Of a stretch of 64,000 nt of DNA, positions 5,438-61,196 are shown piece by piece. A program made the translations under genes and the position numbers. How positions within the stretch are numbered: the first letter of the stretch is position 1; each line of letters opens with the position of its first letter. Under the pieces are notes generated by a model. The model saw only the letters and a list, made by a program, of their open reading frames with translations, ran no database searches and was not told the DNA's origin. Source of the stretch: an archaeon (GTDB taxonomy: Archaea; Thermoproteota; Nitrososphaeria; Nitrososphaerales; UBA183); the NCBI GenBank assembly GCA_021788415.1, contig JAJYKR010000001.1, positions 62,001-126,000 on the forward strand, in the 5' to 3' direction.

Positions 5438-6607
5438 ATGTCGAAGCCTATCGTGACCTTCGCAGACTTCGCCAAGCGGATAGTCATCGTAATCCTGTTC
5501 CTTTTGCTTGTCCTGGTGGTGGTCGGCCTCCCAATCTACTATGTCATCGGCACCTACCTGCACCTTCCGGTCGACTTCGTCCATATAGCCAGCAACCCGG
5601 GCCTTGTCTTGGCCTTCGTCCTCCGCCTCCTCTCCACCGAGCCGATCAAGACCCTCTTCGCTCTCGCAATATTCCCGGGTTTCTCGTTCGTGGCCATCTA
5701 TGGGACCATATTGATGGGCTGGGTCGAGAGGAAGATGACTGCGAAGATCCAGCTCAGGACGGGTCCGATGTACGCCGGGAAGGTCGAAGGCATACTCCAG
5801 AACGTGGCTGACTTCCTCAAGCTCGCGTTCAAGGAGATGGTAATCCCCGACGGGGTGGACACGGCCACCTTTGTGGCCGTCCCCTTCGCCCTCATGGCTG
5901 TGGCAGGAGCCCTTGTGGCCCTGCTCCCGCTCTCCCCCACCGTCTTCATCGCCAACCCCTCGGTCGGCGCGATCCTGGTCTTCGCCATCCTGGGCTTCAC
6001 CCCCCTGGTCGTCCTCGTCGCCGGGTGGGCCAGCAACAGCAAGTTCCCGTTCCTGGGGGGGCTGAGGGCGCTCCACCAACTGGTGGCCTACGAGATACCC
6101 ATGATCCTCTCCCTGGTCGGGGTGGTGGTCCTGGCGGGCTCTCTGAACCTCATGGACATCGTCAACGCCCAGGCGGGGATCTGGTACATCATCCCTGAGT
6201 TCCTGGCCGCGGTGGTCTTCTACATCGGAGCCCTGGCTGAGCTCGAGCGGATCCCCTTCGACCTCCCCGAGGCTGACAGCGAGCTCGTGGCCGGGTGGCA
6301 GACAGAGTATACGAGCATGCTCTTCGGAAGCTTCCAGCTGGCGAACTTCACCAGGATGTACGTCATGGCCGGGCTCTTCACTACCTTCTTCCTGGGCGGC
6401 TGGCTCGGGCCCGCCCCAGTCCCGCCTGTGGTATGGTTCCTGGTGAAGGTCACCATCGTGGACGTCTTCCTCATGCTCCCGCGAAGCATCATGCCCAGGC
6501 TAAGGATCGACATGCTTCTCAGGGCGGGCTGGGTGAAGCTCCTCGCGATCTCGTTCGCCAACATCTTCCTGACTATGGTCCTTGTTTCTCTGGGGGTAGT
6601 CCACTAG
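5438..6607 (+). CDS. nuoH: Complex I subunit NuoH (ND1)
   Basis: A 389-residue membrane subunit that joins the peripheral arm to the proton-pumping arm and helps form the quinone chamber. The family signatures GWVERKMTAKIQLRTGP (near residue 92) and ELERIPFDLPEADSELVAGW (near residue 268) are intact, and about eight transmembrane helices can be traced. It starts with ATG at 5438 and its TAG overlaps the GTG of nuoI by one base. It is the first gene of nuoHIJKMLMN. The peripheral-arm genes nuoABCD, which normally precede nuoH, lie 43 kb away. Confidence 0.96.
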   Translation: MSKPIVTFADFAKRIVIVILFLLLVLVVVGLPIYYVIGTYLHLPVDFVHIASNPGLVLAFVLRLLSTEPIKTLFALAIFPGFSFVAIYGTILMGWVERKMTAKIQLRTGPMYAGKVEGILQNVADFLKLAFKEMVIPDGVDTATFVAVPFALMAVAGALVALLPLSPTVFIANPSVGAILVFAILGFTPLVVLVAGWASNSKFPFLGGLRALHQLVAYEIPMILSLVGVVVLAGSLNLMDIVNAQAGIWYIIPEFLAAVVFYIGALAELERIPFDLPEADSELVAGWQTEYTSMLFGSFQLANFTRMYVMAGLFTTFFLGGWLGPAPVPPVVWFLVKVTIVDVFLMLPRSIMPRLRIDMLLRAGWVKLLAISFANIFLTMVLVSLGVVH

Positions 6608-8751
6608 TGGGGACCTGGGGCTACGTCAAAGGAGTGCTGGTGGCGACCTGGTCTGGAATCAGGCACTTCTTCCGCCCTCGGATGACCCTCCGCTACCCTG
6701 AGCAGAAGCAGGACCTTGAGGGCCCCGGTTACAGGTATGACGCCCGCCAGGGGGTCGGGCTCCCCGGGTTCAAGGGGAGACACGTACTCAGGTTCGAGAA
6801 GTGCACCGGGTGCCAGCTCTGCGCCATAGCCTGCGACGGGGTGGCGGTGGCCATAGAGATGCAGAAGGTCGAGAAGGGGAAGCCCCAGAACAAGAAGGAG
6901 ATCTGGCCGGCCGTGGACTACGGCAGGTGCCTCCCTCCTTCCACGCCGATTACGACCATGGACGGGATCAGGCCTTTGTCAGAAATCAGGGTGGGCGACA
7001 AGGTCCTCACCCACACTGGCAAGTTCAGGAGAGTGACAAAGTTGTTCAGCAGGTCGTACACCGGGACCCTCTACACGTTCAGGACGACAGGGAATCCCGA
7101 GCCTCTCACCACCACGGAAGACCACCCGATTCTGGTCTTCAGACACGGTGAGACTACGTGGTCTTTCGCGAACGAAGTTGAGAGGGGCGCATTCCTCACT
7201 CGACCTCTCATCTCGGACACCGTTCTTATGCGGCTGGGGCCGCACGCAAGTCTCTACTCCAAGGAGCCATTAGCTGAACCTGCTTCACGCGGAACTTCAC
7301 CTGGAATGCAGCTGGAAACGTCTGGTATGGCCGTCTCGGAGGTGGTCAGCATCGAGACTGCGGAGGTTGAGGATTATCTCGTACAGAATCTGGAGGTGGA
7401 AGCCGACAACAGTTACGTCGCAGCAAACCAGAGCGTACACAATTGCGTGTTCTGCGGCCTCTGCATAGAGCCCGACACTGACGTCGTCACCAACCCTGGC
7501 CTGAAGCAGATAAGCCGGCTGGCGATCGGCGACTTGGTGCTCACCCATTCCGGGGAATACAAACCCGTCACGAAGGTCTGGGACATGACCTACACAGGCA
7601 GATACTATGGAATCCACGCATCCGGCAAGCCCGAGCCGCTCCGCTGCACCGCAGACCACCCCATAGTGGCAGTCCCAAGGCTCGCTTTGGACCGTAAAGG
7701 CAGGCGCCTCCTCGGGGCAACGGCCCCTCTGTCCTTCCACAAGCCCGGGGACCTCAAGGCCGGTGACTATCTTGTAAGCCCCATCGTGAGGAAGGTCGTC
7801 CACGTCGACAGGTATGAGAATGACGTACCGACGAACGGAGGAGCCAAGGCAGCCCGCCGGCTCTCTCTTGACGCTACGCCAGAGCTCTTCCGGCTGATAG
7901 GCTACTACTTCTCTGAGGGTTCGTGCGACGGCGGCGGGAGGGTAAACTTCGACTTGAAGAAAGAGGGCGAGGCGTATGCCGAGGACTGTTCTTCGCTTGC
8001 TGCCCGGTTCTTTGGCGAAGGGTGCGAGCCGACGAAGAACGGACAGCACGGGCTGCGGTTCGTCCTGGGCTCGACCTTGGCTGAGGACTTCTTCTCCCAA
8101 TTCGGCAGAGGAGCCTCCGACAAGAAGATGCCGGACTGGGTCTTCTTCGCCGAGCCTGAGAAGCAAGCTGAACTCCTGAGGGGCGGGTGGCAGGCAGACG
8201 GTCGCAGGGCGAGTCAGGCCGGGGAGAATGGTCTCGGCATCGTCACAGCTTCGAAAGTTCTCGCATTCCAGCTCCAGTCTGTCTATGCCAGGTTGGGGGT
8301 AGTCGCTACCGTAGATGCTCAAAGTTCGCCAGGTGAACCGGTGGCCTTCCAAGTCAACGTCTTTGGGCGTTGGGCTGCCAAGCTGGCGGGTCTGTGGAAC
8401 GTGAAATTCGACTATAGCCCTTCGAAGCAGGCGGACAAGTTCCACATCGACGACAGGTACGTCTACCTCCCGATCAAGAAGATCGAGGTCGAGGAGGTCG
8501 AGAACCATCGCGTCATGGACGTCACTGTGGAGGACGACCATACTTTCGCACCGCTCGGACTCGCCACCTCAAACTGCGTAGACGCCTGCCCCTTCGACGC
8601 CCTCGACATGACCAACGACTACGAGCTGGCGGCCTATGACAAGATGAGCCTGAAGTACACGCCCGACATGCTCGCCGTCCCCCCGAAACTGGAGGGGAAG
8701 AAGTACAAGGTGAAGTTCGACACCGAGAAAGGGGTGGTCACCTACGACTGA
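6607..8751 (+). CDS. nuoI: Complex I ferredoxin-like subunit NuoI with two inteins
   Basis: The gene encodes a 714-residue precursor. Excision of the two inteins (172 and 371 residues) leaves a 171-residue NuoI, the normal family size. NuoI carries two [4Fe-4S] clusters that pass electrons to NuoB. The first cluster motif, CTGCQLCAIAC, is intact. The second motif is CVFCGL-CVDACP after splicing, but it is interrupted before its first cysteine (position 7444) and again before its third cysteine (position 8575). The GTG start at 6607 overlaps the nuoH stop codon. The reading frame is open further upstream, to 6295, inside nuoH, but NuoI homology begins at GTWGYVKGV. Without splicing neither cluster could form correctly. 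Confidence 0.95.
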   Translation: MGTWGYVKGVLVATWSGIRHFFRPRMTLRYPEQKQDLEGPGYRYDARQGVGLPGFKGRHVLRFEKCTGCQLCAIACDGVAVAIEMQKVEKGKPQNKKEIWPAVDYGRCLPPSTPITTMDGIRPLSEIRVGDKVLTHTGKFRRVTKLFSRSYTGTLYTFRTTGNPEPLTTTEDHPILVFRHGETTWSFANEVERGAFLTRPLISDTVLMRLGPHASLYSKEPLAEPASRGTSPGMQLETSGMAVSEVVSIETAEVEDYLVQNLEVEADNSYVAANQSVHNCVFCGLCIEPDTDVVTNPGLKQISRLAIGDLVLTHSGEYKPVTKVWDMTYTGRYYGIHASGKPEPLRCTADHPIVAVPRLALDRKGRRLLGATAPLSFHKPGDLKAGDYLVSPIVRKVVHVDRYENDVPTNGGAKAARRLSLDATPELFRLIGYYFSEGSCDGGGRVNFDLKKEGEAYAEDCSSLAARFFGEGCEPTKNGQHGLRFVLGSTLAEDFFSQFGRGASDKKMPDWVFFAEPEKQAELLRGGWQADGRRASQAGENGLGIVTASKVLAFQLQSVYARLGVVATVDAQSSPGEPVAFQVNVFGRWAAKLAGLWNVKFDYSPSKQADKFHIDDRYVYLPIKKIEVEEVENHRVMDVTVEDDHTFAPLGLATSNCVDACPFDALDMTNDYELAAYDKMSLKYTPDMLAVPPKLEGKKYKVKFDTEKGVVTYD
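6928..7443 (+). other. Mini-intein 1 in NuoI (172 aa, no endonuclease)
   Basis: It begins with Cys1 (CLPPSTPITTMDGIRPLSEI, block A) and has block B TTTEDHPILVF with the conserved His. It closes with a VEDYLVQNLEVEADNSYV block F and the terminal VHN, followed by the extein cysteine at 7444. The length and the lack of any LAGLIDADG motif mark it as a mini-intein. All splicing residues (Cys1, block-B His, penultimate His, terminal Asn, Cys+1) are present, so it should be active. The insertion point is the first cysteine of the second [4Fe-4S] motif. Confidence 0.95.
7462..8574 (+). mobile_element. Intein 2 in NuoI (371 aa, LAGLIDADG endonuclease)
   Basis: It starts with Cys1 in CIEPDTDVVTNPGLKQISRL, only six residues (CVFCGL) after the end of intein 1, and ends in LGLATSN before the extein cysteine at 8575. 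Block B is RCTADHPIVAV and block F is VMDVTVEDDHTFAPLGL. The penultimate residue is Ser rather than the usual His, a variant also found in active inteins. A dodecapeptide-type endonuclease region is visible (LFRLIGYYFSEGSCDG near 7888 and LLRGGWQADGR near 8173). The endonuclease could make it mobile. The target codes for the third cysteine of the cluster motif. Confidence 0.95.
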
Positions 8752-8761
8752 CGCCGTCTTC

Positions 8762-9247
8762 GTGGCAATGGCGGTAGTCACCGTGGGGAGCGCGATAGTC
8801 TCCCTCGAGGCCAAGGAGCTCGTATACGGCGCGATAGGCCTCGCCGGCTCGCTCTTCGGGGTCGCTACCCTGTTCTTCCTCCTCAACGCCCCCTACGTCG
8901 CGGTCTTCCAGATTGCGGTCTACATCGGAGCCGTGGCTGTCCTGATTCTGTTCACCGTCATGCTGGTGAGGCAGGAGGGGTTGGCCAAGGAGGTGAAGCC
9001 GAAGTCGACGACGGCGGCGGGGATAATAGCCGCGGTGGCGGTGATTCTTGCGCTGACCTTCGCTGTCCTGGCCACAAACCTTTCGAGGTTCACAGCCATC
9101 ACCAACACGGCTACCTACATAGACATAGGCAAGCTCATCTCAACCGGCGACGCGCCGGTCCTGGAAGTGCTCGCCTTGGTCCTGGCGGCATCCATCGTGG
9201 GCGCCCTGGCCCTGTCTAGGGTCGACAGAGGAGGGGGTGCGCACTGA
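8762..9247 (+). CDS. nuoJ: Complex I subunit NuoJ (ND6)
   Basis: A 161-residue membrane subunit with five hydrophobic helices. The ND6-type segment NAPYVAVFQIAVYIGAVAVL, near residue 44, includes the pi-bulge helix region, and the C-terminus is a hydrophobic helix followed by DRGGGAH. The GTG at 8762 is the first usable start after the nuoI stop at 8751. The TGA at 9245-9247 overlaps the start of nuoK. The length fits short NuoJ proteins. Confidence 0.92.
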   Translation: MAMAVVTVGSAIVSLEAKELVYGAIGLAGSLFGVATLFFLLNAPYVAVFQIAVYIGAVAVLILFTVMLVRQEGLAKEVKPKSTTAAGIIAAVAVILALTFAVLATNLSRFTAITNTATYIDIGKLISTGDAPVLEVLALVLAASIVGALALSRVDRGGGAH

Positions 9248-9561
9248 CCAGCCTTGCGGACTTCGTCATTGTCTCCGCCTGCCTCTTCGGCGTAGGGGTC
9301 TACGGGCTGGTGACCAAGAGGAACGCCCTGCGGCTCCTCTTCTCAATCGAGTTCATGATCAACGCAGCGAACCTTAACTTCGTCGCCTTCAACCAGTACC
9401 TGCCCTATCAGGAGGCGAGCAACGCCCTGGGCCAGACGGTCGTGCTCTTCTCCATCGCCCTGGCAGCCGCCGAGGCCGCGGTCATTCTGGCAATAGTCGT
9501 AGTCGCCTATAGGCTCCGCAACGACATAGACGTGAGTGAGATGAAAACCCTGGAGGGATAG
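9244..9561 (+). CDS. nuoK: Complex I subunit NuoK (ND4L), probable CTG start
   Basis: NuoK has three transmembrane helices with buried glutamates: RLLFSIEFMINAANLNFVAF carries the helix-2 Glu and ALAAAEAAVILAIVV the helix-3 Glu. The first ATG/GTG/TTG in frame, GTG at 9310, would delete helix 1 (SLADFVIVSACLFGVGVYGL). The frame is open upstream to the end of nuoJ, where a CTG at 9244 overlaps the nuoJ TGA. Starting there gives 105 residues, the normal size. I therefore extend the gene to 9244; ATT further in is the alternative. The start codon is inferred from homology, not from a visible ribosome-binding site. Confidence 0.85.
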   Translation: MTSLADFVIVSACLFGVGVYGLVTKRNALRLLFSIEFMINAANLNFVAFNQYLPYQEASNALGQTVVLFSIALAAAEAAVILAIVVVAYRLRNDIDVSEMKTLEG

Positions 9562-9626
9562 AAGTGCCACAACTCAACATCGACCCCACCGGCCGGGCCC
9601 CCGGGTCCAAGCTCCGATAGCAAGGG

Positions 9627-11135
9627 TTGCCCATGGAATACATCCTTCTTCAGACGGTGGCTGTCCCACTCGCGGTCGCCCCCGTCGTCCTCCTCCTCGG
9701 GAAGAAGCTGGGGCGCCATGTGGGCTGGATAGCCTTCGCCTCCCTGCTCTATACGACCCTCCTCCTCGCCTACCTCGGGACCTCGCTCTTCAACGGGGGT
9801 CCGAACGTGACCGAGTCCTACGCCTGGGCGCCAGTCTCCGGGCTGACCTTCGGGTTCCTCGGCGACAACCTCAGCGTCCCTGTGGCGCTGATGATGAACA
9901 TCGTCGTGATGGCGACGGCCGTCTACTCGATGGGATACATGAAGCACAGGCTGGAGGTCATGTACGGCGAGGAGAGGAAGGGCCAGTACGCCATCTACTT
10001 CCTCAACTTCATGCTCCTTGACGCCGGGCTGATCGGCGTCTCGCTTGCGACCAACCTCCTCGAGCTGTACATGTTCCTGGAGCTAATGTTGATACCTTCG
10101 ACATTCATGGTCGCCCTCTTCGGGTACACCAACAGGGAGAGGACGGCCATGATGTACTTCCTCTGGAACCACCTCGGCGCGTTCATCTTCCTCGCTGGAA
10201 TCGTCGTGGCCTACTCAGCCACCGGGAGCTTCCAGATATCCTCCCTGTCGACCATCCCGCTGGGGACCGTGGCCTACTGGGCCGTTGGGCTCATCCTCGT
10301 CGGCTGGCTAATCAAGATGGCCATCTTCGGGGTGCACCTCTGGCTACCTACGGCCCACGCAGAGCACCCCACCTCCTTCGCCCCGTTCATCGTCACCATA
10401 GTCGGCGTGGGCAACTACGTGGTGGTGAGGCTGCTGGTGGAGGGGATGCGGTCAGCCTTCATCCCCTTCGCCTTCCCACTCATGATCATGGCGGTGATCA
10501 CCATGGTCTACGGAGGGGCGATGACGATGGTGCAGAACGACGTGAAGTACCTCTACGCCTGGTCCACCATCAGCCAGAACGCCTACTCCCTCCTCGGCAT
10601 CGGGAGCCTGAGCGTGTTGGGGGTGTCGGGCGGGCTCTTCTACTTCCTGAACCACATCATCGGCAAGACGATCCTATTCTGCGTAGCCGGCATCATGATC
10701 ACCCAGGTGGGGACAAGGGACATGCGCAAGATGGGCGGGCTGGCTGGGAAGATGCCCCTCACCGCAGCGGTCGCCCTGATCGGCTCCATGATACTCTCTG
10801 CGGTCCCTCCGACCGGGGGCTTCCAGGCAGAGTGGCTGCTGTTCGAAGGCGTCTTCACGCGCGGGATCGCGGGGGGGCTGGCCTGGAACTTCGTCGTGGC
10901 GATAATGGGTCTGGCTGCGACCGCGCTCACCGTAGCCTACACATTCTGGCCGATGCGTAAGATATTCTTCGGCCCCCTGTCAGACGACCTGATGGGGGTG
11001 AAGGAGGCCCCGCTCATCATGACCGCTCCGCTAATCTTCCTCGCCGCCCTGTCCATAGTGATCGGCATCTATCCTGACCTCTTCTTCAGGTCCCTCTACC
11101 ACTTCGCGAGCACGATAGGATTGTCAGGTAGATAG
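9627..11135 (+). CDS. nuoM: Complex I antiporter-like subunit NuoM, first copy
   Basis: A 502-residue Mrp-antiporter-like proton-channel subunit with about 14 helices. The NuoM signatures are visible: ELYMFLELMLIPSTFMVALF carries the TM5 Glu, WLIKMAIFGVHLWLPTAHAE the TM7 Lys and amphipathic turn, and the downstream quinone-oxidoreductase core is complete (NDVKYLYAWSTISQNAYSLL). The start is TTG at 9627 or ATG at 9633. It is the first of two NuoM paralogues in this operon, separated by NuoL. Both look intact, so the complex may hold four antiporter-like subunits instead of three. Confidence 0.92.
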   Translation: MPMEYILLQTVAVPLAVAPVVLLLGKKLGRHVGWIAFASLLYTTLLLAYLGTSLFNGGPNVTESYAWAPVSGLTFGFLGDNLSVPVALMMNIVVMATAVYSMGYMKHRLEVMYGEERKGQYAIYFLNFMLLDAGLIGVSLATNLLELYMFLELMLIPSTFMVALFGYTNRERTAMMYFLWNHLGAFIFLAGIVVAYSATGSFQISSLSTIPLGTVAYWAVGLILVGWLIKMAIFGVHLWLPTAHAEHPTSFAPFIVTIVGVGNYVVVRLLVEGMRSAFIPFAFPLMIMAVITMVYGGAMTMVQNDVKYLYAWSTISQNAYSLLGIGSLSVLGVSGGLFYFLNHIIGKTILFCVAGIMITQVGTRDMRKMGGLAGKMPLTAAVALIGSMILSAVPPTGGFQAEWLLFEGVFTRGIAGGLAWNFVVAIMGLAATALTVAYTFWPMRKIFFGPLSDDLMGVKEAPLIMTAPLIFLAALSIVIGIYPDLFFRSLYHFASTIGLSGR

Positions 11136-11138
11136 GAA

Positions 11139-13280
11139 ATGACAGCGGTCCCGATCCCATCTTACTTCGTCTGGCTCATCTTCCTCCTCCCCTATGCGGG
11201 GACGCTGGCCGCGCCTCTCACCGGCAGGGGGCGGATCCGAGACGTAGCGGCCGTCCTCTTCTCCTTCCTCTCCGCCATCTTCGCTCTCGTCCTCCTCGTA
11301 CCCGTGATCGAAGGCAATACCATCTCCCTGGTCAACTCGCTGATCCCTGCCTCTGTCCCGTGGATCCCCGAGCTCGGAATCAGCTTCGGGGTGCTCTCGG
11401 ACCCGTACACCGTGATCATAGCGAACCTGGTCGCCTGGATCAGCTTCCTCGTCATGCTGTACAGCGTCGACTACATGAAAGGGGACAGCGGGCTCACAAG
11501 ATACTGGTTCTTCATGAGCTTCTTCATCGGGAGCATGCAGCTCATCGTCCTATCCAACAACCTCCTCTCGCTCTTCATCGGCTGGGAGGGGGTCGGCCTT
11601 TGCAGCTACGCCCTGATAGGCTACTACTACCACGACGAGAAGGAGAACTGGGTCGGAACCCCCGGCTCCAAGGCCCTGGGGATGGAGCAGGCCTACCCGC
11701 CTTCTCACGCCGGGATGAAGGCGTTCTTCATGACGAGGATAGGGGACATGGCGATGTTGGCTGGGATACTGATCCTGTTCATCTACTCAGGGACTTTCAA
11801 CTATCAACAGCTGGCGTCGTCCACAGGCTGGGCGACGTCTCTGGCCGCCGGAGGGCTGCTGGTCCCAGTCGCCCTGCTGATATTCGGAGGTGCAGTGGGG
11901 AAGTCCGCCCAGTTCCCGCTCCAGGAGTGGCTCCCTGACGCCATGGCGGGGCCCGCCCCCGTCTCCGCCCTGATCCACGCGGCCACCATGGTCAACGCGG
12001 GTGTGGTACTCGTCGCGCGCATAGGGCCCATATTCTACTTCGCCCTTCAGTCCAACCCTGCCCTGATCCAGCCCTTCTTCATGGTGGTAGCGTGGATCGG
12101 TGCCATCACCGCCTTCTTGGCGGCCACCCAGGCGATGGTGGGCTTCGAGCTGAAGAAGCTCCTCGCCTATTCCACCATATCACAGATAGGTTACATGATG
12201 CTGGGCCTCGGCCTCGCGGGCCTCTCGACCAACTTCGCGGAGGGGCTGTCGGCCGGCCTTTACCAACTGTTGAGTCATGCCATATTCAAGGCAGCGCTGT
12301 TCATGACGGCCGGGGTACTGATTCATCTCACAGGGACCAAGTACGTCAACGAGATGGGCGGGCTGAAGGAGAAGCTGAAGATCACCTTCGCAGTCTTTCT
12401 CATCGCCGCAGCTTCCCTCTCGGGAATCCCCCCGCTCAGCGGCTTCTTCGCGAAGGACGCCATCCTGGCGACGGCGTGGGGGTCTGGGCAGTACGGCCTT
12501 TTCCTCCTGGGGTCGGCGACCGCAGGACTGACCGCATTCTATGCGTTCAGGATGGTCGGCCTCGTCTTCTACGGGGTGAGGGAGAAGCACGCCGGGGAGG
12601 GGACCGGCCACGAGCTCAAGGAGCCATCGCCCATCAGCTGGATCCCATACTCGGTCCTCGCTGCGGGGACCGTCCTGATCGGCGTCCTCGGCATCTTCAA
12701 CTTCCAGGGGGACCTGCAGGGTGCCTCTGTCGCATACATCTACAGCCTGTTCAAGGGTGCCAGCTTCAGCAGCCTGAACTCGACCTCCTCATTCAACTTC
12801 GTCTCGTCGGGGATCACCCTGGCGTTCGCCCTGACCGGTTTGCTCCTGGCTGTCCAGCTCTACGTGCGGAGGAAGACGGCTCCCTCCGCCCTGGTCAAAG
12901 AGTCCGGCCTGGCCCACGGCCTCTACCGCTTCCTCGAGAACCGCTGGTACATCAACGCCATCTACTACAGGGTGTTCGTCGACGCGCCTCTGCGAGCTTC
13001 ATATTGGACCTTGGACAACTTCGAGCTGGGCGTCCTCCAGAGGGTCCACGGAGGCGGGGCCAACCTGGCCATCGGGGTCTCTGCAGTCGGGAACTGGTTT
13101 GACCGGCACGTCGTGGACGTCGCCTCTGACGGCTTCGCCAGGGCCGGCCAGGGCCTCTCGAAGGTCTTCCGGAGGCTGCAGACCGGCATCCTCGAAGAGT
13201 ACGCTCTGGTGTTCGCCATCGGCCTCATCCTCCTGCTGCTCTTCTTCCTGTTCGTGACTGGGGTGTACACAGCGATATGA
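11139..13280 (+). CDS. nuoL: Complex I antiporter-like subunit NuoL (ND5)
   Basis: A 713-residue distal proton-pumping subunit. The core motifs NNLLSLFIGWEGVGLCSYAL (TM5 Glu), GKSAQFPLQEWLPDAMAGP (TM7 Lys region) and STISQIGYMMLGLGLAG are intact. The long C-terminal extension after about residue 470 would form the lateral helix and the anchoring final helix (LVFAIGLILLLLFFLFVTGV). ATG at 11139 lies four bases after the preceding stop. The gene's last four bases, ATGA, overlap the start of the second nuoM, which indicates translational coupling. Confidence 0.95.
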   Translation: MTAVPIPSYFVWLIFLLPYAGTLAAPLTGRGRIRDVAAVLFSFLSAIFALVLLVPVIEGNTISLVNSLIPASVPWIPELGISFGVLSDPYTVIIANLVAWISFLVMLYSVDYMKGDSGLTRYWFFMSFFIGSMQLIVLSNNLLSLFIGWEGVGLCSYALIGYYYHDEKENWVGTPGSKALGMEQAYPPSHAGMKAFFMTRIGDMAMLAGILILFIYSGTFNYQQLASSTGWATSLAAGGLLVPVALLIFGGAVGKSAQFPLQEWLPDAMAGPAPVSALIHAATMVNAGVVLVARIGPIFYFALQSNPALIQPFFMVVAWIGAITAFLAATQAMVGFELKKLLAYSTISQIGYMMLGLGLAGLSTNFAEGLSAGLYQLLSHAIFKAALFMTAGVLIHLTGTKYVNEMGGLKEKLKITFAVFLIAAASLSGIPPLSGFFAKDAILATAWGSGQYGLFLLGSATAGLTAFYAFRMVGLVFYGVREKHAGEGTGHELKEPSPISWIPYSVLAAGTVLIGVLGIFNFQGDLQGASVAYIYSLFKGASFSSLNSTSSFNFVSSGITLAFALTGLLLAVQLYVRRKTAPSALVKESGLAHGLYRFLENRWYINAIYYRVFVDAPLRASYWTLDNFELGVLQRVHGGGANLAIGVSAVGNWFDRHVVDVASDGFARAGQGLSKVFRRLQTGILEEYALVFAIGLILLLLFFLFVTGVYTAI

Positions 13281-54879: not shown

Positions 54880-54951
54880 TTCGCAAGGCTGCGTTCTTCG
54901 CTGACGAAATAAACCTATGTTGTTGAACGGCACCAGAAAATCGGTTGAAGA

Positions 54952-55040
54952 CGGGCCCGGTGCGATTTGAACGCACGACCTACAGCTCGCTCCACGGCGT
55001 GTAGGAGGCTGCCGCGCTATCCGTACTGCGCTACGGGCCC
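54952..55040 (-). tRNA. tRNA-Arg(CCT) with a canonical intron
   Basis: Acceptor GGGCCCG/CGGGCCC with discriminator G, D-stem GCGC/GCGC, anticodon stem GCAGC/GCTGT with anticodon CCT, and T-stem GTGCG/CGCAC. A 14-nt intron, CACGCCGTGGAGCG, sits at 37/38. The spliced form is 75 nt. CCA is not encoded and the D-loop is normal. Confidence 0.92.
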
Positions 55041-55081
55041 AGCCAGGGCCCGAAAAGAACCATGATATTACCTGTTCCTGT

Positions 55082-59064: not shown

Positions 59065-59448
59065 GTGAACCCTGAAATGGCTCTCTTCGGGGACATCGGG
59101 ACAATCTTCGTCATGGCCCTCGTCGCCGTAGGGCTCACGGGGATGGTCATAATCCTCCCGCGCCTCTTCGCGCCTAGGCGGCCCAACCCCATCAAGAGCC
59201 TCCCCTTTGAGGCTGGTCAGGTCCCCCAGGGCGCCGGGAAGATGCACTTCATGATGCAGTACTACGCCTACTTACTCATGTTCATAGTGTTCGACGTCCT
59301 TTCGATGTTCCTCTATGCCTGGGCGTCGGCCTACAAGCCGCTCGCCCTTGGACTGACGTCCGACTGGACAGTGACGCTCTTCATGGGTATGCTCTTCATC
59401 CCCATGGGTTTCGCCCTCGTACTCGCGGGGAAGAGGGAGCTTTGGTAG
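59065..59448 (+). CDS. nuoA: Complex I subunit NuoA (ND3)
   Basis: A 127-residue protein with three transmembrane helices. The conserved loop and helix [19 protein letters not shown] and [20 protein letters not shown] (Glu/Asp pair) identify NuoA. GTG at 59065 is used here; the ATG at 59077 fits the leaderless spacing from TCTTAAATAA better and is a strong alternative. It opens the peripheral-arm operon nuoABCD, separate from nuoH-N. Its last seven bases overlap nuoB. Confidence 0.93.
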
Positions 59449-61196
59449 CCGCGCAGCAACAGAAGACCGGGAGCTTCCAGGTCCTCGTAGGCAAGATAGA
59501 CGACGTACTCCAGTACGCCATCGGAGACCCGCTGCGCTACCTTGCCAACTGGGGACGCCTCTATTCCCTCTGGCCCGTGCACCTCGAAACGGCCTGCTGC
59601 TCAGTCGAGGTCGGGGCGGCCGCCGGTTCGAGATTCGACATAGAGCGCTTCGGCACGCTGGAGGCGTTCGGCTCGCTCCGCGCCTGCGACCTCATCATAG
59701 TCATGGGGACCGTGACGAGGAAGCTGGCCCCGAGACTGAAGCTCATCTACGACCAGATGGCGGAGCCGAAGTGGACCATTGCCATGGGCGCTTGTCTTCG
59801 GGGCGATTCGCTGGTCTACACACCCAACGGCGTCAAACGAATCGACGGCGTGGGTCCCGGGGAGCTCGTTCTTACCTACGACGAGCAACGCAAGAGGGTG
59901 ATCACCGGCCAGGTGGTGGCCAACAAGGACCAGGGGAGTAAGGACGTGTGGAGGCTCCGCGCAGGTGCCTATGAGTTGGTGGCCACGGAGGACCATCCCT
60001 TCGCGGTTTACGAGCGGACGCTCTCGCGGAGGTGGATCACCTACCAGTCTGTACTCGGATTGCTCGAAGAGGGATTCACACTGCGAGAAATCGCTCCGTT
60101 GGTGGGAGAAAGTGCCAAGACTCTCTCCAATTGGAGACGGCATCCCCCAGCCCAATTCGGGCTGGATATAGTGTGGAAGCGCTTCAATCAGGTGAAGGAA
60201 GGCGATTTGCTGGGAACATTCGCCGCGCCCGTCATAGATACGCCCTACAATATCAATCGCTCACACGATGGAGGGCTGAGGAACAAGGTCAGAGTCTCAC
60301 GGTCCGCGGACGATAATCTCGCGTGGCTTGCGGGCCTCCACCCTGGAGACGGCTGGAGCGCGGGGCCACGAGGAGCCTCCTCCCAAACGGGGGAAGACTT
60401 GTCAAGGCGGCATCTCTCTCAGGGAGCGAACGGGTCGTTTGCAGTGGGTGCCTGGGCGACTCGCCAGGCCGAGACTCAGCCCGAGGCGGCCTCTGGAGCG
60501 TCCGAGCAGTCGCTTCTCCCTCGCGGCGGTGTCCGTTCCAAGCGCGTCCCCGGTTGGGTCTACCCCCTGCCCTCGACTTCTGTCTACGGCTTCCTCGCCG
60601 GCCTGATTGAATCCGATGGCAGCGTGGAGGAGCAGGGTTCCGCCCAACTAAGCTCAGACAACTACGATCTGATGCGTGACGTCGTCGAACTCTGCCACTA
60701 CCGCGGCATACGCGTCGGCGGCGTCTTCGAGAAGGAGAAAGGGGATATCCTGAAAGAAAGGTACCTCGAAGCGAAAGAATACGCAGTTTCATTCCCCGCC
60801 GAAACTGTGGCGAAGCTCCCACTGCACAGACCTGGTTACCAAAGTCGGACAAAGCGTGGCTCCCGTTCATTCGACGGCAGATCTCTCCTCAAGACCAATC
60901 ACCCAGGAATCGCCCTCCAGAGGGTCACCTCTATCATCCCCCGAGGAAGAGAGCAGGTCTACGACATCGAGGTGGAGGGCCACCACAACTACTTCGCCAA
61001 CGGTGAGCTGGTCCACAACTGCTCGATCACCGGCGGACTCTACTTCGACTCCTACAACGTCCTCAGGGGCATCGACGACATCATACCGGTAGACGTGTAC
61101 GTCCCAGGCTGCCCTCCGAGGGCCGAGGCACTGATTCAGGGGATAGTGCTTTTGCAAGAGAAGATCAGACGGATGCCGACCCTTGGCGGCCGGTGA
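59442..61196 (+). CDS. nuoB: Complex I subunit NuoB with an intein
   Basis: A 584-residue precursor. Removal of the 409-residue intein leaves 175 residues, normal for NuoB, which carries the terminal N2 [4Fe-4S] cluster next to the quinone. Its ligands are the tandem cysteines in LETACCSVE, the cysteine of MGA-CSITGG, and [11 protein letters not shown]. The intein sits before the third of these. TTG at 59442 overlaps nuoA. The GTG of nuoC overlaps its stop. Confidence 0.95.
59793..61019 (+). mobile_element. Intein in NuoB (409 aa) with LAGLIDADG endonuclease and HTH-like insert
   Basis: It begins with Cys1 in [17 protein letters not shown] and ends with FANGELVHN before the extein Cys at 61020. 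Block B is [12 protein letters not shown] and block F is [13 protein letters not shown]. Endonuclease motifs are [13 protein letters not shown] (near 60319) and [14 protein letters not shown] (near 60592). The stretch between them is low in complexity and may be decayed. Between block B and the endonuclease a helix-turn-helix-like segment, [20 protein letters not shown], is inserted. All splicing residues are present. Confidence 0.95.

What the first reader, a model, noticed from the sequence alone, without database searches (positions are those of the whole stretch)
6928..8574. Two inteins only six residues apart inside one Fe-S motif of NuoI
Intein 1 (172 aa, no endonuclease) ends just before CVFCGL and intein 2 (371 aa, LAGLIDADG) begins just after it. 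The spliced sequence CVFCGLCVDACP is the textbook second [4Fe-4S] motif, so both borders are firm. The first splice must leave only a six-residue peptide between two inteins, a demanding and very unusual arrangement. I know of no described complex I subunit with two inteins.
Basis: partly seen in the sequence, partly recalled or inferred. Interest (0 to 1): 0.88.

Follow-up and report, generated by a model that had tools for sequence, protein, structure and literature searches.

The report
Two inteins flanking six NuoI residues
An archaeal respiratory protein is interrupted by two apparently self-removing protein inserts (inteins) only six amino acids apart, right at the cysteines of an iron-sulfur motif; the same double insertion recurs in several genera of one archaeal family, so it is a real and repeatedly formed arrangement rather than an oddity of one genome.

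Summary
Confirmed, and broader than reported. The window's nuoI (GTG 6607 to stop 8751) encodes a 714-aa precursor: mini-intein a (6928-7443, 172 aa), hexapeptide CVFCGL (7444-7461), intein b with a LAGLIDADG domain (7462-8574, 371 aa). Each stands directly before a cysteine of the second [4Fe-4S] motif. Assembly fault is unlikely: a separate assembly differs by 1 base in 8001, and 55 of 186 fully parsed database proteins (one is the window's own) carry both inteins around the same hexapeptide position. In one Nitrososphaerota family, 31 genome lineages split into 7 with neither, 11 with a, 8 with b, 5 with both. Intein similarity does not track host similarity, and single inteins are flanked by low-GC codons, as homing would give. 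Relatives have a second NuoB site; G214 carries four complex I inteins. Best reading: two independently mobile inteins whose homing sites share an 18-bp half-site. Splicing is untested. Ten open-library searches found no print record.

The parts
6607..8751 (+). nuoI, precursor of 714 aa including both inteins (GTG start overlapping the nuoH stop codon)
   Evidence: frame; translation; start chosen by comparison with relatives' MGT/VGT starts
6607..6927 (+). N-extein, with first [4Fe-4S] motif CTGCQLCAIAC, ending in DYGR
   Evidence: best NuoI model TIGR01971 matches at 73 bits, below its cut-off of 113, as expected of an interrupted protein
6928..7443 (+). intein a: 172-aa mini-intein without endonuclease domain; Cys1, TEDH block B, terminal His-Asn
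   Evidence: full-length relatives have about 195 more residues at the deletion point
7444..7461 (+). hexapeptide CVFCGL between the inteins (18 bp); first two Cys of the second Fe-S motif
7462..8574 (+). intein b: 371 aa, Hint domain split by LAGLIDADG endonuclease; Cys1, TADH block B, penultimate Ser, terminal Asn
7885..7920 (+). LAGLIDADG motif 1 of intein b (LFRLIGYYFSEG, acid E kept)
8182..8202 (+). LAGLIDADG motif 2 of intein b (GGWQADG, acid D kept)
8575..8751 (+). C-extein beginning CVDACP (third and fourth Cys of the second Fe-S motif), with stop
5438..6607 (+). nuoH (context: complex I operon)
   Evidence: Pfam NADHdh
8762..13280 (+). nuoJ, nuoK, nuoM and nuoL, without a visible intein (context)
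   Evidence: Pfam hits; ORFs
59442..61196 (+). nuoB, also interrupted by an intein (start codon not settled)
59793..61019 (+). intein of NuoB (409 aa, C...LVHN), inserted directly before the Cys of the MGAC motif

Best explanation
nuoI carries two separate class-1-type inteins (Cys1, terminal Asn, Cys +1) at two insertion sites 18 bp apart. Each splices autocatalytically, in either order, to give the 171-aa NuoI with its second [4Fe-4S] motif CVFCGLCVDACP restored. Each +1 cysteine that accepts the extein is itself a motif cysteine. The two sites have been colonised, lost and re-colonised independently by homing. The 18-bp hexapeptide DNA would be the right half of site a's target and the left half of site b's, just long enough for each endonuclease to find its site when the other intein is present. 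In this organism intein a is an old mini-intein and can no longer home by itself; intein b keeps its catalytic acids, but its endonuclease domain is diverging fast. Shown: anatomy, distribution, repeated changes of state on the trees, decoupling from host similarity, purifying selection in relatives. Inferred: splicing activity, splicing order, shared half-site, endonuclease status.
For: Borders and motif. All 122 parsed a inteins have Cys1, His-Asn and +1 Cys; all 119 parsed b inteins have Cys1, Asn and +1 Cys. Intein-free, a-only, b-only and double alleles all occur, in numbers compatible with independence (5 both, 6.7 expected, Fisher p 0.29). The fewest changes of b presence on the best a tree are 18 (10 independent pairs on well-supported branches), and of a presence on the best b tree 19. 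NuoI extein identity tracks NuoH identity (rho 0.89 among a holders, 0.88 among b holders), but intein identity does not (rho -0.02 and 0.16). Third-position GC near the sites drops in single-intein alleles but not in empty ones. dN/dS of splicing domains is well under 1 (medians 0.22 for a, 0.14 for b; 8 and 10 usable pairs of 78 each). Folds.
Against: No splicing or cleavage was measured. Intein b lacks the usual penultimate His. The shared half-site is untested, since target lengths are unknown. Window intein b has a long branch, and both its splicing part (mean identity 0.742; lowest of 21 clade members 0.763) and its endonuclease part (0.628; lowest 0.772) are less like the clade than any member compared. 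Silent-site identity near the sites was not higher among holders of the same intein (permutation p 0.50 and 0.39), so a direct co-conversion test failed, although the GC3 signal was found. Inteins exceed exteins in identity in only 1 of 120 a pairs and 1 of 78 b pairs, so recent transfers are few in this sample. Window intein a is too short to have been in the dN/dS set.
Confidence: 0.88

Rival explanations
1. Assembly or binning artefact: two alleles with one intein each were collapsed into one contig.
For: The bin has 7.47% contamination and a second nuoI on contig C9 with an a-site intein.
Against: A separate assembly (G200, record JAFLZH010000001.1) differs by 1 base in 8001, though it may come from the same site. 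Fifty-four further parsed proteins show the same layout. The C9 allele is a different, about 78%-identical sequence with a full-length a intein.
Confidence: 0.01
2. One or both inserts no longer splice, and the gene is dead or makes only fragments.
For: Window intein b is divergent and lacks penultimate His; G214's two endonucleases have each lost a catalytic acid.
Against: The frame is open, and Cys1, terminal Asn and +1 Cys are kept in every parsed relative. dN/dS is well under 1 in the usable pairs, two of which include window intein b (0.14 and 0.19). No other nuoI that belongs to this species was found in the bin, and neighbours nuoH, J, K, M and L look intact.
Confidence: 0.05
3. The pair acts as one unit: the N-junction of intein a reacts with the C-junction of intein b, and the hexapeptide is lost with them.
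For: The first 70 residues of a and b are 43% identical, so cross-pairing is conceivable.
Against: The product would lack two motif cysteines. CVFC[GA][LF] is kept in all 55 parsed doubles (the parser required a motif of this kind, and one b-only row with CVNCGL was set aside). Each intein also occurs alone at the same site.
Confidence: 0.02
4. Origin rival: intein b arose from intein a, or the reverse, by a local jump of 18 bp rather than by separate invasions.
For: 43% identity over the first 70 residues; a and b held together as one clade is not rejected (p-AU 0.289).
Against: The best tree, drawn with a midpoint root, puts four inteins of other genes (Mrp type L123, radical SAM L129, NuoB of contig C9 L019, and a flavoprotein-like frame L020 named by eye) nearer to a than b is, with weak support (92/57); a and b each form their own group (97/84 and 89/75). 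Only 112 columns were used.
Confidence: 0.2

Closest known systems
Haloarchaeal MCM-a / MCM-d neighbouring inteins (PMC10643990; read: parts 1 and 2 of 6 of the text, plus passages)
   Same: Two LAGLIDADG inteins at nearby conserved positions of one archaeal gene; single, double and empty alleles coexist; frequent gain and loss; mini forms occur.
   Different: MCM sites are described as close, but the parts I read give no distance; here they are 6 residues apart. Host is a complex I Fe-S subunit in Nitrososphaerota, for which (as Thaumarchaeota) their Table 1 lists 0 multi-intein genes and 1 single-intein gene in 18 genomes.
Mycobacterium smegmatis DnaB inteins DnaBi1 and DnaBi2 (PMC6195587; read: passages)
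   Same: One mini-intein without endonuclease and one intein with it in the same protein.
   Different: Different host protein and domain of life; the passages do not describe them as flanking a few residues of one metal-binding motif.
Mycobacterial SufB intein (PMC8891592: search listing only; a passage of PMC6195587 says its splicing is highly sensitive to oxidation)
   Same: Intein in a protein of iron-sulfur biology, with a mechanism open to redox control.
   Different: Intein of an assembly scaffold, not in the ligand motif of a respiratory subunit.
Archaeal VMA intein with endonuclease domain (TliVMA 7qss, PDB)
   Different: 17% identity; other host gene and site.

Membership tests
Class 1 inteins | N-terminal Cys or Ser nucleophile | tested here: met
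   Cys1 in both; 122 of 122 parsed a and 119 of 119 parsed b inteins
Class 1 inteins | Block B TxxH | tested here: met
   TEDH in window a and TADH in window b; a simple pattern finds TxxH in 121 of 122 a and 119 of 119 b
Class 1 inteins | C-terminal Asn followed by Cys, Ser or Thr in the extein | tested here: met
   Asn then Cys at both sites in all 122 a and 119 b parsed
Class 1 inteins | Penultimate His (usual, not obligatory; recalled) | tested here: inconclusive
   a: His in 122 of 122; b: Ser in 105, His in 8, Lys 3, Gly 2, Ala 1 of 119
Class 1 inteins | Hint fold | tested here: met
   (prediction and profile, not a solved structure)
Class 1 inteins | Intein-free orthologues joining exactly at the borders | tested here: met
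Class 1 inteins | Self-excision with extein ligation | not testable with these tools
   needs expression and mass spectrometry
LAGLIDADG homing endonuclease (intein b) | Two LAGLIDADG motifs with an acidic residue each | tested here: met
   E and D kept in window b; E and D in 120 of 127 b rows
LAGLIDADG homing endonuclease (intein b) | Cleaves the intein-free allele | not testable with these tools
   domain is diverging fast in this organism
LAGLIDADG homing endonuclease (intein a) | Endonuclease domain present | tested here: not met
   Absent from window a; present by length in 93 of 131 a rows

The most novel reading that the evidence does not exclude
In this archaeal family, complex I maturation is gated by protein splicing. 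Inteins stand directly before Fe-S ligand cysteines in both Fe-S subunits (two sites each in NuoI and NuoB). With intein b in place, its own Cys1 completes CVFCGLC, so a cluster, iron or oxidation could trap the splicing nucleophile. Splicing would then act as a redox or iron checkpoint on assembly of the electron wire. The double arrangement would be a two-key lock, kept for that reason rather than as passive parasitism.
Probability: 0.12. Interest if true: 0.93.

Novelty: new variant of a known kind. Interest (0 to 1): 0.8.

Why it matters
It gives a natural system in which two homing inteins may share an 18-bp half-site, with empty, a-only, b-only and double alleles in one family. It also extends inteins to both Fe-S subunits of complex I, where the residue needed for splicing is a motif cysteine, so splicing and Fe-S assembly compete for the same thiols.

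Tried and rejected
Rejected: assembly artefact, and a second functional nuoI (see rivals). Rejected as unproven: 'the presence of b makes a lose its endonuclease'. Mini forms are 33 of 57 a inteins with b and 4 of 70 without (P0001, P0037, P0123 and the C9 copy were dropped beforehand as near-copies). On the a tree, however, this rests on only 3 changes, and the sign test on independent pairs gives p 0.5-1. Loss of a catalytic acid among full a inteins is 4 of 24 with b against 3 of 66 without (Fisher p 0.079, E-to-D counted as kept). The database sample is skewed towards window-like and G146-like sequences, each list being the best 120 of 157 and of 168 hits; one search also scored only the 7996 candidates sharing most words. 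Negative: direct test of shared silent sites near the insertion points (p 0.50 and 0.39). Led nowhere: search of viral contigs for intein b (no match; close relatives only); sequence search of the PDB (two weak hits each). Literature: ten searches of the open PMC library listed no paper on an intein in NuoI or NuoB and none on a pair six residues apart; I opened four papers (PMC10643990, PMC2814812, PMC6805012, PMC6195587), the last three for passages only. Subscription papers and preprints are not held. NuoI inteins outside the family: the match rows printed for genomes outside the family have frames of at most 311 aa, and 15 such genomes, most of them with weak or extra matches, were searched again without finding one. 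Not all match rows were printed, and one search drew 400 genomes from a larger class.

Full report

NOT AN ARTEFACT. The window is part of a 772-kb contig of a metagenome bin (99.24% complete, 7.47% contaminated). A separately assembled record, G200 / JAFLZH010000001.1 ('Nitrososphaerota archaeon isolate MAS4_bin.35'), differs by 1 base in 8001; it may come from the same site. The bin's second nuoI, on contig C9, has one full-length intein at site a. It is 99.66% identical to G146, another species, over 8751 bp and about 78% to the window, so I read it as contamination. No intein-free nuoI was found in G000 or G200. G406, called the same species, is 62% complete and gave no nuoI match, but it has the same NuoB intein site.

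DISTRIBUTION. I searched 400 genomes of the class with the spliced protein, rechecked 15 family members, and searched 16 handles, 12 of them new. I then read the alleles. The family has 46 genomes. Five are near-copies of others and were dropped (G200, G407, G408, G409, G411), as was contig C9. Ten gave no usable full-length NuoI: G218, G389, G398, G301, G349, G306 and G315, and G404, G406 and G410. The other 31 are 7 with neither intein, 11 with a only, 8 with b only and 5 with both. The doubles are the window, G214, G371, G311 (its C-terminus is cut by the contig end) and G403, across four genus codes. Five both against 6.7 expected shows neither attraction nor exclusion (Fisher p 0.29).

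In the protein database, two searches listed 195 different proteins, of which 186 could be parsed completely. They are 64 b only, 63 full a only, 4 mini a only, 23 full a plus b, and 32 mini a plus b: 55 doubles, among them P0001, the window's own cluster, and the near-identical P0019-P0023. The nine dropped rows are P0043, P0094, P0099, P0107, P0110, P0111, P0119, P0121 and P0140 (fragments or a motif variant). Four of these (P0043, P0094, P0110, P0121) appear to hold parts of both inteins. The hexapeptide in the doubles is CVFCGL in 48, CVFCAL in 3, CVFCGF in 3 and CVFCAF in 1. Clusters are at 90% identity, and the lists favour sequences like the two queries.

HOW IT WORKS. Junction residues are uniform: Cys1, Asn and +1 Cys in all 122 parsed a and 119 parsed b inteins. 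The penultimate residue is His in all a but Ser in 105 of 119 b. Splicing domains and endonucleases evolve with dN/dS well under 1 (medians 0.22 and 0.27 for a, 0.14 and 0.20 for b; usable pairs 8 of 78 and 10 of 78, the rest set aside because dS was 2 or more; mini-inteins and near-copies were left out). So I infer that both splice. The order is free in principle: either removal gives the other intein ordinary flanks. No splicing was measured.

MOBILITY. The fewest changes of b presence on the best tree of a inteins are 18 (10 independent pairs when only well-supported branches are used); of a presence on the best tree of b inteins, 19. Many branches are weakly supported. NuoH identity predicts NuoI extein identity (rho 0.87 over 378 pairs of 28 genomes) but not intein identity (rho -0.02 over 91 pairs for a, 0.16 over 55 pairs for b; pairs are not independent; truncated G311 and one genome without readable nuoH were left out). 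Inteins diverge faster than exteins: the intein is the more similar in only 1 of 120 a pairs (G201 and G146) and 1 of 78 b pairs (G303 and G403, different genus codes, 83% against 76%). Codons near the sites have lower third-position GC than distant codons in single-intein alleles (mean difference -0.14 for a only, n 14; -0.27 for b only, n 8) and not in empty ones (+0.02, n 7; single against empty p 0.002). Doubles are similar to a only (-0.16, n 5). The hexapeptide is most affected in b-only alleles (0.38 against 0.83 in empty ones; b only against empty plus a only p 0.0003; near-copies are included in these n, and G309 is not). This fits import of flanking DNA during homing. A direct test for shared silent sites among holders was negative, so the GC signal could instead reflect target preference.

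The spacing suggests a specific mechanism. The 18 bp between the sites would be the right half-site of a and the left half-site of b. A study of neighbouring MCM inteins saw evidence of cutting with 34-35 bp targets (PMC10643990, part 2), that is about 17 bp on each side. Eighteen bases could therefore be just enough for each enzyme to act when the neighbour is occupied. This is inference.

THIS ORGANISM. Intein a lacks about 195 residues of endonuclease. It belongs to a mini-intein clade (34 rows) that largely travels with one b clade (29 rows). Intein b keeps the catalytic E and D, but its endonuclease is only 63% identical on average to 21 clade mates (their own mean 82%, minimum 77%), and its splicing part is 74% identical (mean 80%, minimum 76%). 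I read this as relaxed selection on homing after fixation.

A WIDER PATTERN. In one search, 43 of 46 family genomes matched NuoB, 18 of them with an uninterrupted full-length match. I read 20 interrupted frames (the window and 19 fetched stretches chosen because they looked interrupted, with same-species copies). Of these, 12 have an intein only between the tandem cysteines (LETAC|C), 6 only at MGA|C, and 2 (G214 and G400) at both sites. G214 therefore carries four inteins in complex I. All four sites directly precede cysteines that I recall as cluster ligands (E. coli NuoB C64 and C129, recalled). Related inteins also interrupt the CPxC motif of an Mrp/NUBPL-type NTPase (L123) and the CxxxCxxC motif of a radical SAM protein (L129); protein families by Pfam, motif positions by eye. 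The simplest reason is chemical: the splice needs a +1 nucleophile, homing needs conserved DNA, and Fe-S ligand cysteines supply both. A regulatory role is possible but unsupported by any measurement.

WHAT IS KNOWN. Multi-intein archaeal genes, mini/full pairs and interference between neighbours are known (PMC10643990, PMC6195587). The former lists no multi-intein gene in 18 Thaumarchaeota genomes. I found no report of inteins in NuoI or NuoB in ten searches of the open library (listed under Tried and rejected), which lacks subscription papers and preprints. A machine name in the database (for example 'NADH:ubiquinone oxidoreductase subunit I/intein/homing endonucle...') shows that annotation pipelines see the domains. 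NCBIfam also has a model for an intein-containing radical SAM tetraether lipid synthase.

VERDICT. Two real inteins, six residues apart, in a recurrent arrangement: a new variant of a known kind (multi-intein genes), at a very short spacing and in a new host complex.

Noticed in passing
window 59442-61196 (+): nuoB with a 409-aa intein directly before the MGAC cysteine; relatives have a second NuoB site between the tandem cysteines, and G214 and G400 have both.
   Followed up: partly
L123 (G349 contig C89) and L129 (G320 contig C66): Further inteins inside Fe-S-type cysteine motifs: CPxC of an Mrp/NUBPL-type NTPase (which shows a second intein after DLPPG), and CxxxCxxC of a radical SAM protein (positions read by eye).
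   Followed up: partly
the window's family (46 genomes): The family is intein-rich: 45 of 46 genomes match Intein_splicing (39 over the cut-off), up to 23 matches per genome, and some frames of over 2000 aa hold several matches.
   Followed up: no
window 54950-55041 (-): ARAGORN calls a tRNA-Pyl (anticodon CTA), so TAG might be read as pyrrolysine in some genes.
   Followed up: no
G000 contig C9 (L009, L176): Contig of the same bin whose nuoI region nearly matches another species (G146); it carries its own nuo genes with other intein sites; probable contamination.
   Followed up: yes
G301 contigs C1 and C9: Two nuoB-like matches in one genome, one uninterrupted (184-aa frame) and one with an intein at the tandem-cysteine site.
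   Followed up: no
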